In this document: positions 18,415 to 23,632 of the stretch, piece after piece
Position numbering within the stretch: the first letter of the stretch is position 1
Layout of the letters: each line of letters opens with the position of its first letter
NCBI GenBank assembly: GCA_943349725.1
Contig: CALQZP010000004.1
Span: 1 to 32,118, forward strand
Direction of reading: 5' to 3'
Length of the DNA stretch: 32,118 bases
Origin: Candidatus Nomurabacteria bacterium
GTDB taxonomy: Bacteria > Patescibacteriota > Minisyncoccia > Phycocordibacterales > UBA10002
Made by a program: the position numbers and the translations under genes
The notes under the pieces: generated by a model
Seen by the model: only the letters and a program-made list of their open reading frames with translations
Told to the model about the DNA's origin: nothing
Databases searched by the model: none

Positions 18415-19317
18415 TTGACAACTACAGACAAGCTACTTATGAGTACCCACAACCTCAATCGGATACTTCACCCACACATTCAGAACTTCACCCAAGACCT
18501 CGGATTCTCTATTTCTGGAATAAACGACTGTTTTCTTTGTCCCGATGCACTCCAGCGATCTGAAGACCGATACATCGGTATCTTCGGCTCGAGGCCGTCC
18601 TGTCGTGGTGTTGCGGATGATATCATCGCCGCATGCGCCGCTCTCGCCGTACTCGATGCCAAACGCGGAGCCCCAACGGTGATAAACATCAATGCGGCCC
18701 CCCGTGGAACAAAAGTTCAGAGCCTCGTCGCGGAAAAACCCGCAAACGGAACGCCGTTTGGTTTTGTCAGATTCGGCGGAACACTCATCACTTCGACCCT
18801 CAAAGGTTACGAGCTTTCGCTGGTTAAAAAGTTCTTCGGCCTGAAGAAACTTTGTTTGCTCGACATTCCCGCCGTCATGGAGTACATGGTCAAGCTCGGA
18901 CGAGTTTCGGAGGACCATGCGGAACACGTCTGCAACACCCAGTTCAGGAGCTTCGAGTTCCAGCCTGACGTCGCCGCCTGGCTCTGGGCAAAAGAAGAGT
19001 TGCCTTTTACCGAGGTATCAGCAGATACGATTCCCGATATGCCGAGAATCGTGTGGAAAATCGATAACTTCGGCAACTGCTGCACGACCCTTCACCGTTC
19101 CGAGGTTTCGGAGTTGGATGGACAAATCGCGACAAAGTGGGGAGCTCTTCCTTATTACAAGCGCCTTGCCGATGTACCGAGTGGCAGGGTGGCTGTCGTA
19201 TCAGGAAGCTCTGGATTTGGGTTCGGTCCTCGGAACCGCTTTCTTGAAATCATGGTTGGCGGCATGGGAAGGGCCTCAGAGAAACTTGATATCAAAGTCG
19301 GGGAAACCGTCCTGTAG
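18415..19317 (+). CDS. Protein resembling the SAM hydroxide adenosyltransferase/SAM hydrolase (DUF62) family, divergent
   Basis: IVWKIDNFGNCCTTL and GFGPRNRFLEIMVGGMGRASEKLDIKVGETV resemble the C-terminal domain motifs (IDRFGNLVTNI; LEIAVNxGxAAExLGLKxGDxV). Confidence 0.45.
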   Translation: MTTTDKLLMSTHNLNRILHPHIQNFTQDLGFSISGINDCFLCPDALQRSEDRYIGIFGSRPSCRGVADDIIAACAALAVLDAKRGAPTVININAAPRGTKVQSLVAEKPANGTPFGFVRFGGTLITSTLKGYELSLVKKFFGLKKLCLLDIPAVMEYMVKLGRVSEDHAEHVCNTQFRSFEFQPDVAAWLWAKEELPFTEVSADTIPDMPRIVWKIDNFGNCCTTLHRSEVSELDGQIATKWGALPYYKRLADVPSGRVAVVSGSSGFGFGPRNRFLEIMVGGMGRASEKLDIKVGETVL

Positions 19318-19340: not shown

Positions 19341-19373
19341 GCCGCCTCGGCTCTCAAACCGAGGCGGCTTTTT
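19341..19373 (+). terminator. Rho-independent terminator
   Basis: GCCGCCTCGG ctctcaaa CCGAGGCGGCTTTTT. Confidence 0.9.
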
Positions 19374-19374
19374 G

Positions 19375-19627
19375 TTGACAGAGGCCTAAACCGGCGTAGA
19401 ATGACCATGTCAGTTCTTGTCTTGGTCAGATTTTAGCCGAGGCCGTAGTTTCGTATAAATTTCTTCAGCGGGGTTCCCCACCCCCACTTAAACCTCGCCA
19501 GGTTTTCCTAAATTTATACATTTCTGCGGTCTCGGTTAATTTCTCGATCCCTTAGTCGACGTTCAGACGGTTTTGCACTTGGAGTTCTCAAGCTCATTTT
19601 GCATGCTGTCTGTCCGTCGGCTTTTTG
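19375..19627 (+). ncRNA. Candidate structured ncRNA unit 1 (own promoter and terminator)
   Basis: TTGACA 19375-16-TAGAAT 19397; helices CCGAGGCCGTAG/CTGCGGTCTCGG (with G-U) and TATAAATTT/AAATTTATA; terminal hairpin ending GCATGCTGTCTGTCCGTCGGCTTTTTG. Confidence 0.65.
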
Positions 19628-19866
19628 TTGACAGCGTAAATAGTCGGTGTACACTGGCCGTGTAAAAGTTCACCGGGACGAGGCTAGACAGACTCATGGC
19701 GTATCCTTCAAGTGGGATTCCTCATCTCCAACATGTCAGTACGCCAACGAAGGCTTTGGTTTTCGTTCCGTGGCGGCCGGCGCGGCAGACAGCAAAAAGT
19801 ACATACGTCAGGTAACCCACTATTTTTTACCTCACTAGTGTATGCTGTCTGTCCGCCGGTTTTTTC
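19628..19866 (+). ncRNA. Candidate structured ncRNA unit 2 (own promoter and terminator)
   Basis: TTGACA 19628-16-TACACT 19650; helices TGGCGTA/TACGCCA and AACGAA/TTCGTT; CCGGCGCGGCAGACAGCA pairs with TGCTGTCTGTCCGCCGG then T-run. Confidence 0.65.
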
Positions 19867-19896: not shown

Positions 19897-20316
19897 ATGG
19901 CACCCCCCCAAAAAACCGTGCTGGTGTTCGGGACCTTTGACGGACTACACGACGGACATCGCTTTTTCTTGACCGAGGCGAAACGCCTCGGAAATAAACT
20001 TATCGTGTCGGTCGCGACCGATGAGGTGGTCGCGAAGTTCAAGGGTCACGCCCCGAAACAGCATCTGGAGGAACGCTTGCAAACACTTGAGGCGAGCGGG
20101 CTTGTGGACCTTGCCGTTGCGGGGGACAGAGTGCTTGGTGGGTGGGGGGCGATACGCGTCTGGAAGCCAGATATCGTCGCTGTCGGCTACGACCAAACGC
20201 ACCTCGCCGAAACGCTCCAAAAGTTTATCACCACCGAAAAACTTTCTTTAAAAATTGTGCCAATTAAAGCACTTGAACCCACCCGTCTGCACTCCAGTTT
20301 GCTCCCAGGGAAATAG
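19897..20316 (+). CDS. Nucleotidyltransferase (cytidylyltransferase/HxGH-like family)
   Basis: VLVFGTFDGLHDGHRFFLTEAKRLGNKLIVSVATDE; ATG 19897 lies 6 nt after TATAGT. Confidence 0.8.
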   Translation: MAPPQKTVLVFGTFDGLHDGHRFFLTEAKRLGNKLIVSVATDEVVAKFKGHAPKQHLEERLQTLEASGLVDLAVAGDRVLGGWGAIRVWKPDIVAVGYDQTHLAETLQKFITTEKLSLKIVPIKALEPTRLHSSLLPGK

Positions 20317-22375: not shown

Positions 22376-23431
22376 TTACATCTTGATAACCTTCTCCCAC
22401 GGAAGTCCTTTTTTGCCGAAATGTCCATAGCTGGCGGTTTTGAGATACCACGGCTTTCGCAGGTCCAGACGGTCAATAATCGCGAGCGGACGGAAATCAA
22501 AGTTCTTTTTAACGAGTGAGGCAAGACTTTTCCCCTTCTCATCAATCGCATGCACCATCAAGGGTTCAATGTGACCGATGGCGTAGGCGACCGAGACGAG
22601 ACAGTCCTTGGCGTAGCCGTTCGCAACGAGGTTCTTCGCGACGAAACGACACATATACGCGGCGGAGCGGTCTACCTTGGTGAGGTCCTTTCCGGAAAAC
22701 GCGCCTCCACCGTGACAAATAAGCCCGCCGTAGGTGTCTACCATAATTTTGCGTCCCGTAAGTCCTGCATCAGCCTCAAATCCTCCCTGCACAAAAATGC
22801 CGGTGGGGTTGACGAGCACTTCAATGCCCTTGAGCGAGCCTATAATCGGAGCGATAATTTTCTTCGTAACGGTCTCCGTCACTTCATCATGCAAGACACT
22901 CTTGTCGTGCTGGGTAGAGACAAGTGCGGTAGCAATCTTGTTGTCGAGAATAGTAATCTGGGTTTTGCCGTCAGGCTTGAGCCATTTGATTTCTTTTTTC
23001 TCGCGAGCCTCCTGAAGTCGGCGTGCCATTTTGTGCACGAGTACGACACCTGTAGGCAAAAATTCGGGAGTTTCCATGGTGGCGAAGCCATACATAATTC
23101 CCTGGTCGCCCGCGCCACCGGTATTCACACCCTGCGCGATGTCCTGCGACTGTTCCACAATAAAGACTTGAATGTCCAGAGGTTTGGTATAGCCGATACT
23201 TCGGTACACACTGGCGGCAATCTTCTTGTAATCCACCTTCGCATTAGTCGTCACCTCCCCGCCGAGCACGAGATGTCCGTGACTTCCGAAAGTTTCTACC
23301 GCGACCCGGCTCATCGGGTCCTGACGAAGACACTCGTCCAAAATGGCGTCCGAGATTTGGTCACAGACTTTGTCTGGGTGACCGTTCGTTACGCTTTCTA
23401 CCGTATATGTTTTTCGGTCGTGTATGTGCAT
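22376..23431 (-). CDS. metK: S-adenosylmethionine synthetase
   Basis: ESVTNGHPDKVCDQISDAILD, GAGDQGIMYGFA, GGGAFSGKDLTKVDRSAAY; start at MHIHDRK preferred. Confidence 0.95.
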   Translation of the reverse strand: MHIHDRKTYTVESVTNGHPDKVCDQISDAILDECLRQDPMSRVAVETFGSHGHLVLGGEVTTNAKVDYKKIAASVYRSIGYTKPLDIQVFIVEQSQDIAQGVNTGGAGDQGIMYGFATMETPEFLPTGVVLVHKMARRLQEAREKKEIKWLKPDGKTQITILDNKIATALVSTQHDKSVLHDEVTETVTKKIIAPIIGSLKGIEVLVNPTGIFVQGGFEADAGLTGRKIMVDTYGGLICHGGGAFSGKDLTKVDRSAAYMCRFVAKNLVANGYAKDCLVSVAYAIGHIEPLMVHAIDEKGKSLASLVKKNFDFRPLAIIDRLDLRKPWYLKTASYGHFGKKGLPWEKVIKM

Positions 23432-23490
23432 AGCTTGCCTATCACGATACCAATATGTGAATTGGTACAAATGACACTAATAAATACTAA

Positions 23491-23524: not shown

Positions 23525-23632
23525 GTGTAGTATCCTTCCCCCGAGGGGGCTGGGTGAGCACTTTATTCCTTTCGGAACAAGTTGCCGGAGGGTCCTTGAG
23601 CCAGTGCTCTATCCTCTCTCTTGATATCGCTA
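23525..23632 (-). promoter_or_regulatory. SAM-I-type (S-box) riboswitch upstream of metK
   Basis: Minus strand TATCAAGAGAGAGGATAGAGCACTGGCTCAAGGACCCTCCGGCAAC...AAAGTGCTCACCCAGCCCCCTCGGGGGAAGGATA; P1 TATC/GATA and S-box signature ATCAAGAG...CCGGCAAC...GTGCT...CCAGC. Confidence 0.88.

What the first reader, a model, noticed from the sequence alone, without database searches (positions are those of the whole stretch)
19375..19866. Two tandem promoter-structured RNA-terminator units upstream of a nucleotidyltransferase
Both units start with GGCTTTTTGTTGACAG (terminator T-run of the previous unit joined to the next -35) and a 16-nt spacer to TAGAAT or TACACT. They extend about 200-220 nt without convincing ORF and end in related hairpins ..ATGCTGTCTGTCCG(T/C)CGG(C/T)TTTTTT. 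Unit 1 has a long helix (CCGAGGCCGTAG/CTGCGGTCTCGG then TATAAATTT/AAATTTATA); unit 2 has TGGCGTA/TACGCCA and AACGAA/TTCGTT. Shared ends with different middles suggest duplicated sRNA genes that diverged, or two members of an undescribed CPR ncRNA class.
Basis: partly seen in the sequence, partly recalled or inferred. Interest (0 to 1): 0.72.

Follow-up and report, generated by a model that had tools for sequence, protein, structure and literature searches.

The report
Tandem genes of uncatalogued small RNA
The window carries two neighbouring genes for small folded RNAs; the first, and probably the second, belongs to a previously uncatalogued RNA family that is common in Verrucomicrobia and rare in ultrasmall CPR bacteria, and whose exposed C-rich loops look built to block ribosome-binding sites.

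Summary
Two tandem units (19375-19628, 19628-19866) each have a TTGACA-16-TAnnnT promoter, a ~205-220 nt strongly folded non-coding transcript (z -10.3, -5.7) and a terminator; no Rfam family matches. 20 of 23 pairs covary (0/500 shuffles). It has its own promoter just before the hairpin and a U-run after it. Neighbour genes show no preferred orientation, so it is not a leader. A covariance model built without window sequences hits unit 1 (38.9 bits, E 2e-8) and its syntenic relative in a congener (26.8 bits); unit 2 is below significance (11.3 bits), a probable diverged member. Patescibacterial members share the window units' layout. Most members expose two C-rich strands, UUCCYCA and ACCUCCUU, the latter identical to the 16S anti-Shine-Dalgarno; the window units keep only the first. 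Most likely trans-acting sRNAs that mask ribosome-binding sites (mechanism ~0.4; RNA genes ~0.9). No expression data.

The parts
19341..19375 (+). Terminator of the preceding gene, whose T-run joins the -35 box of unit 1
   Evidence: 10-bp stem, 9 G-C pairs, then TTTTT
19375..19402 (+). Promoter of unit 1, TTGACA-16-TAGAAT
   Evidence: 11 of 12 consensus matches
19409..19627 (+). Unit 1: predicted small RNA, about 219 nt (start inferred 7 nt after the -10 box)
   Evidence: fold -88.0 kcal/mol, z -10.3
19433..19539 (+). Unit 1 main hairpin: 16-bp outer helix 19433-19448/19524-19539, inner helix 19453-19462/19510-19519
   Evidence: MFE and MEA structures agree
19445..19516 (+). Unit 1 match to the family model
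   Evidence: 38.9 bits, E 1.9e-8 with R1, built without window sequences; 29.0 bits with R2
19463..19488 (+). Conserved apical motif, CTTCAGCGGGGTTCCCCACCCCCACT; P2 stem GGGG/CCCC 19470-19473/19482-19485
   Evidence: 20 of 20 match to the family core at 19468-19487
19554..19626 (+). Unit 1 terminator domain and T-run
   Evidence: 8-bp helices 19554-19561/19615-19622 and 19564-19571/19605-19612, then TTTTT
19628..19655 (+). Promoter of unit 2, TTGACA-16-TACACT
   Evidence: 10 of 12 consensus matches
19662..19866 (+). Unit 2: predicted small RNA, about 205 nt (start inferred)
   Evidence: fold -77.4 kcal/mol, z -5.65
19670..19773 (+). Unit 2 main hairpin, inner helix 19697-19704/19739-19746
19706..19732 (+). 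Apical motif of unit 2, CTTCAAGTGGGATTCCTCATCTCCAAC
   Evidence: 15 of 20 match to the family core; R1 11.3 bits E 1.2, so weak on its own
19775..19865 (+). Unit 2 terminator domain and T-run
   Evidence: helices 19775-19782/19854-19861 and 19784-19794/19843-19853
19897..20316 (+). Downstream nucleotidyltransferase-like gene, the shared landmark in congeners; not shown to be regulated by the RNAs
   Evidence: Pfam CTP_transf_like E 1.7e-12; 72% identical orthologue in G004

Best explanation
Unit 1, and probably unit 2, are tandem genes for small structured RNAs of an uncatalogued family, each transcribed alone from a sigma-70-type promoter and ended by its own terminator (inferred from sequence; RNA genes about 0.9 likely). 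The family hairpin is a rod that presents pyrimidine-rich single strands: an apical UUCCYCA loop on a short GGGR/YCCC stem and, in nearly all members outside the window's genus, an internal ACCUCCUU identical to the 16S anti-Shine-Dalgarno. Most likely mechanism: it acts in trans, pairing with purine-rich ribosome-binding sites of mRNAs and blocking initiation, as C-rich sRNAs such as LhrC do (inferred, about 0.4). The window's copies have lost ACCUCCUU, so they would act through the UUCCYCA loop, perhaps on narrower targets (inference).
For: Independent model R1 hits unit 1 at E 1.9e-8 and the syntenic copy in G004 at 5e-5. Covariation: 16 of 23 pairs in a plain MAFFT alignment, 20 of 23 in 73 sequences, 303 double-change cells against 81 in shuffles, 0 of 500 as high. 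Own promoter 9/12 or better in 68 of 99 against about 5 in shuffles, T-run in 83 of 99 against 40. Downstream gene 39 same strand, 42 opposite: not cis. Patescibacterial copies share promoter-leader-hairpin-terminator. ACCUCCUU in 67 of 73 members, predicted unpaired at 0.90; duplex with a consensus Shine-Dalgarno -12.1 kcal/mol. Variant loops stay pyrimidine-rich. Several copies per genome and a tandem pair elsewhere.
Against: No expression data and no target identified. Both window units lack ACCUCCUU; the UUCCYCA loop alone pairs weakly with a consensus Shine-Dalgarno (-4.2 to -5.8 kcal/mol). Unit 2 is not significant with any model. So strong conservation across phyla is unusual for a base-pairing sRNA and would also fit a protein-binding RNA.
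Confidence: 0.45

Rival explanations
1. Protein-binding RNA: the conserved pyrimidine strands form a binding site that sequesters or scaffolds an RNA-binding protein (KH, S1 or cold-shock type), like CsrB or 6S in logic, rather than pairing with mRNAs.
For: The core is conserved almost base for base across phyla while the stems vary freely; several copies per genome.
Against: ACCUCCUU is exactly the anti-Shine-Dalgarno, which pairing explains and protein binding does not need; no partner gene recurs beside the RNA. CsrA-type GGA loops are absent.
Confidence: 0.3
2. Cis-acting leaders (riboswitch or attenuator) of the nucleotidyltransferase gene: promoter, sensing hairpin, terminator, gene.
For: Unit 2 ends about 30 bp before the gene, and the same gene follows the RNA in G004.
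Against: Elsewhere the downstream gene is on either strand (39 against 42) and of no constant kind; two complete units in tandem, each with its own promoter, do not fit one leader. Other congeners keep the gene without a detectable copy.
Confidence: 0.12
3. Mobile or selfish hairpins spread by a transposase.
For: Several copies per genome; sporadic in Patescibacteria; one copy lies about 270 bp before an IS110 transposase.
Against: Each copy keeps its own promoter and U-run and compensatory stem changes, which selection on a transcript explains; no transposase recurs among neighbours; no match in plasmids or phages.
Confidence: 0.08
4. Divergent copies of a known housekeeping RNA (6S, SRP, RNase P, tmRNA).
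For: About 200 nt and rod-shaped, as 6S RNA is.
Against: No Rfam 15 match for the window units at gathering or relaxed threshold, nor for the best members; ARAGORN finds no tmRNA here; copy number up to 7.
Confidence: 0.04

Closest known systems
LhrC1-5 of Listeria and other UCCC-motif sRNAs (RsaE, SprD, RNAIII, FsrA)
   Same: Several copies per genome; pyrimidine-rich UCCC motifs in loops and single strands; in LhrC these bind an mRNA and cover its Shine-Dalgarno (PMC4132741).
   Different: No sequence relation was found here; LhrC is about 111-114 nt and confined to Listeria, whereas this hairpin is about 75 nt, strongly covarying and shared by two phyla.
FopS sRNAs of Bacteroides (PMC11697453)
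   Same: Multicopy sRNA family with its own promoters that represses translation of target mRNAs near the start codon.
   Different: Its seed lies in a single-stranded 5' end, not in a hairpin; it is deposited in Rfam, and Rfam did not match ours.
PmaR of Agrobacterium (PMC6234868)
   Same: Long stem with an accessible C-rich loop that contacts targets.
   Different: Mostly activates targets, and most predicted sites are away from the ribosome-binding site; single species studied.
Alphaproteobacterial 'cuckoo'/CcsR RNAs with CCUCCUCCC loops
   Same: Recalled as tandem multicopy hairpin sRNAs with anti-Shine-Dalgarno-like loops (own knowledge; the paper looked up is not held).
   Different: Not compared by sequence here; a lead, not a test.

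Membership tests
New UCCYC-hairpin RNA family (defined here) | Significant match to a covariance model built without the window | tested here: met
   Unit 1: 38.9 bits, E 1.9e-8 with R1
New UCCYC-hairpin RNA family, unit 2 | Significant match to a covariance model | tested here: inconclusive
   11.3 bits, E 1.2; 13.3 bits with R3 where an unrelated site scores 12.0; supported by loop motif, P2 pairs, promoter and shared terminator end
New UCCYC-hairpin RNA family | UUCCYCA loop on a GGGR/YCYC stem | tested here: met
   Both units
New UCCYC-hairpin RNA family | Internal ACCUCCUU strand | tested here: not met
   Present in 67 of 73 members, absent from both window units and L004; L217 and L218 have also lost it
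New UCCYC-hairpin RNA family | Own promoter upstream and terminator downstream | tested here: met
   Both units
6S, SRP, RNase P, tmRNA or any Rfam 15 family | Match at the curated gathering score | tested here: not met
Cis-regulatory leader / riboswitch | Constant co-directional downstream gene | tested here: not met
   39 same strand, 42 opposite; no constant neighbour
LhrC-type C-rich sRNA | Accessible UCCC-like motif in a loop | tested here: met
   UUCCCCA and UUCCUCA mostly unpaired in both units
LhrC-type C-rich sRNA | Pairs with target mRNA at the Shine-Dalgarno and represses it | not testable with these tools
   Needs an experiment
IS110 bridge RNA | Lies in the non-coding end of an IS110 element | tested here: not met
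   No IS110 gene adjoins the window units; only one of the examined copies has one nearby

The most novel reading that the evidence does not exclude
A cross-phylum family of anti-Shine-Dalgarno-mimic RNAs that tunes translation initiation broadly in Verrucomicrobiota and was passed horizontally to ultrasmall Patescibacteria, where, as in this window, it was duplicated, enlarged and turned to narrower targets.
Probability: 0.2. Interest if true: 0.85.

Novelty: new variant of a known kind. Interest (0 to 1): 0.6.

Why it matters
A strongly covarying RNA family missing from Rfam 15 and shared by Verrucomicrobiota and Patescibacteria gives a handle on post-transcriptional control in two poorly studied groups; a text search found no paper on small RNAs of Patescibacteria that bears on it. 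If the anti-Shine-Dalgarno reading is right, it would be a translation-level regulator that can be tested in a cultured Verrucomicrobium.

Tried and rejected
Direct DNA similarity in 40 relatives found nothing; the stems diverge too fast, and the motif search worked instead. The G245 pattern hit was treated as chance, since the reversed-pattern control gave 4 hits in the same survey. The pattern hits that lack the CCACCTCC continuation were dropped. Weak ~20-bit hits in G762, L172, L175 and L059 were not counted as members. Plasmid and phage collections: no match. Literature searches for the sequence and the family: nothing found. IS110 bridge RNA was considered because of L025/L061 and rejected. 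L005 (G008) was considered a third orthologue at the same locus: promoter, rod and terminator are there, but no model hits it, so it stays a candidate.

Full report
Observation. The two units exist as described. Promoters TTGACA-16-TAGAAT (19375-19402) and TTGACA-16-TACACT (19628-19655) score 11 and 10 of 12. Both transcripts fold far below shuffles (z -10.3 and -5.65). Their 3' ends are homologous (24 of 27 bases; score 39 against at most 26 in shuffles). Rfam has no match. The host is a patescibacterium: its order contains G185, whose 92608-bp contig C9 corresponds to the record CAIOGI010000009.1, a Candidatus Taylorbacteria assembly.

The main hairpins share an apical motif: CUUCAGCGGGGUUCCCCACCCCCAC in unit 1 and CUUCAAGUGGGAUUCCUCAUCUCCAAC in unit 2. 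In congener G004 the same motif lies in a promoter-hairpin-terminator unit upstream of the orthologous nucleotidyltransferase (72% identical), although the next gene upstream is a different one.

The family. 110 occurrences share a ~75-nt hairpin, mostly in records titled Verrucomicrobia. The scan did not require the bases after CCA, yet the real hits nearly all continue ACCUCC. Structure: a long variable stem, an inner ACG/CGU, an asymmetric internal loop with ACCUCCUU on its 3' side, and a GGGR/YCCC stem with UUCCYCA. Covariation is strong: 16 of 23 pairs in 38 sequences aligned by plain MAFFT and 20 of 23 in 73 sequences, 0 of 500 shuffles as high; the second alignment was fitted to the model and so leans towards it. 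Copies have their own promoter just before the hairpin (68 of 99 at 9/12 or better, about 5 in shuffles) and a U-run after it (83 of 99, against 40). Rfam has no match for members at the gathering score, nor a meaningful one below it.

Distribution. In a Verrucomicrobiota sample 20 of 243 genomes had a hit, with up to 7 places in one (strict filters, so a lower bound). In the phylum of the one Sumerlaeia-titled record, 1 of 40, so that copy may be contamination or transfer; titles of metagenome bins are not reliable. Some patescibacterial and Verrucomicrobia-titled copies share parts of the stems as well as the loop (L213 against L047, L063 and L138), which suggests transfer; no tree was made.

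Membership of the window units. Model R1, with no window sequence, hits unit 1 (38.9 bits, E 1.9e-8) and L004 (26.8 bits, E 5e-5) and gives unit 2 only 11.3 bits, E 1.2, though at the right place. R2 gives unit 1 29.0 bits and does not list unit 2. R3, built from patescibacterial rows including unit 1 and L004 but not unit 2, gives unit 2 13.3 bits in a 621-base search in which an unrelated site scores 12.0. Unit 2 therefore rests on its loop motif, the kept P2 pairs, its promoter and its shared terminator end; a core match of 15 of 20 or better also occurs at three other sites in the window. Architecture agrees: the other patescibacterial copies have promoter matches of 8 to 11 of 12 with the -10 box 26-57 nt before the motif, and nearly all have a separate terminator; the window units have 60 and 50 nt.

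Mechanism. Shown: a covarying hairpin, conserved pyrimidine strands, promoter and terminator signals, no cis linkage, several copies per genome, and tandem pairs here and in L090. Inferred: transcription, trans action and target pairing. ACCUCCUU equals the 16S 3' tail (established knowledge) and is predicted unpaired at 0.90; its duplex with a consensus Shine-Dalgarno is -12.1 kcal/mol, that of UUCCUCA -5.8. Variant apical loops stay pyrimidine-rich (UCCUC, CCCUC, UCUCC, UCUUC). This fits masking of ribosome-binding sites as in LhrC (PMC4132741). The window units have lost ACCUCCUU, so the case for them is weaker than for the family. A protein-binding role remains open.

Verdict.

Noticed in passing
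window 23527-23630 (-) and 22376-23470 (-): A SAM riboswitch (Rfam RF00162, 47.1 bits) precedes a SAM synthetase gene on the same strand: ordinary pairing, in a patescibacterium.
   Followed up: partly
window 18415-19317 (+): The gene before unit 1 ends in a SAM hydroxide adenosyltransferase C-terminal domain and has no match in the 12 congeners searched.
   Followed up: no
L005 1142-1425: At the same locus in congener G008: promoter, long rod and terminator with CCGGCG/CGTCGG ends, not hit by any model; a possible further diverged orthologue.
   Followed up: partly
L090 1096-1170 and 1214-1287: Two family hairpins in tandem 118 nt apart, as in the window.
   Followed up: no
L055 3643-3738: A family copy with a second hairpin inserted in its core (36.5 bits).
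   Followed up: no
L025/L061: A patescibacterial copy lies about 270 bp before an IS110 transposase gene.
   Followed up: partly
about 15 verrucomicrobial loci, e.g. L029, L068, L073, L075: A conserved pair of genes (about 365 and 670 aa) lies upstream, on the opposite strand, in one subgroup; proteins not identified.
   Followed up: no
G762, loci L173, L176, L178: Six ~20-bit hits that look like a genome-specific repeat containing CCCCCACCTCCTTGG.
   Followed up: no
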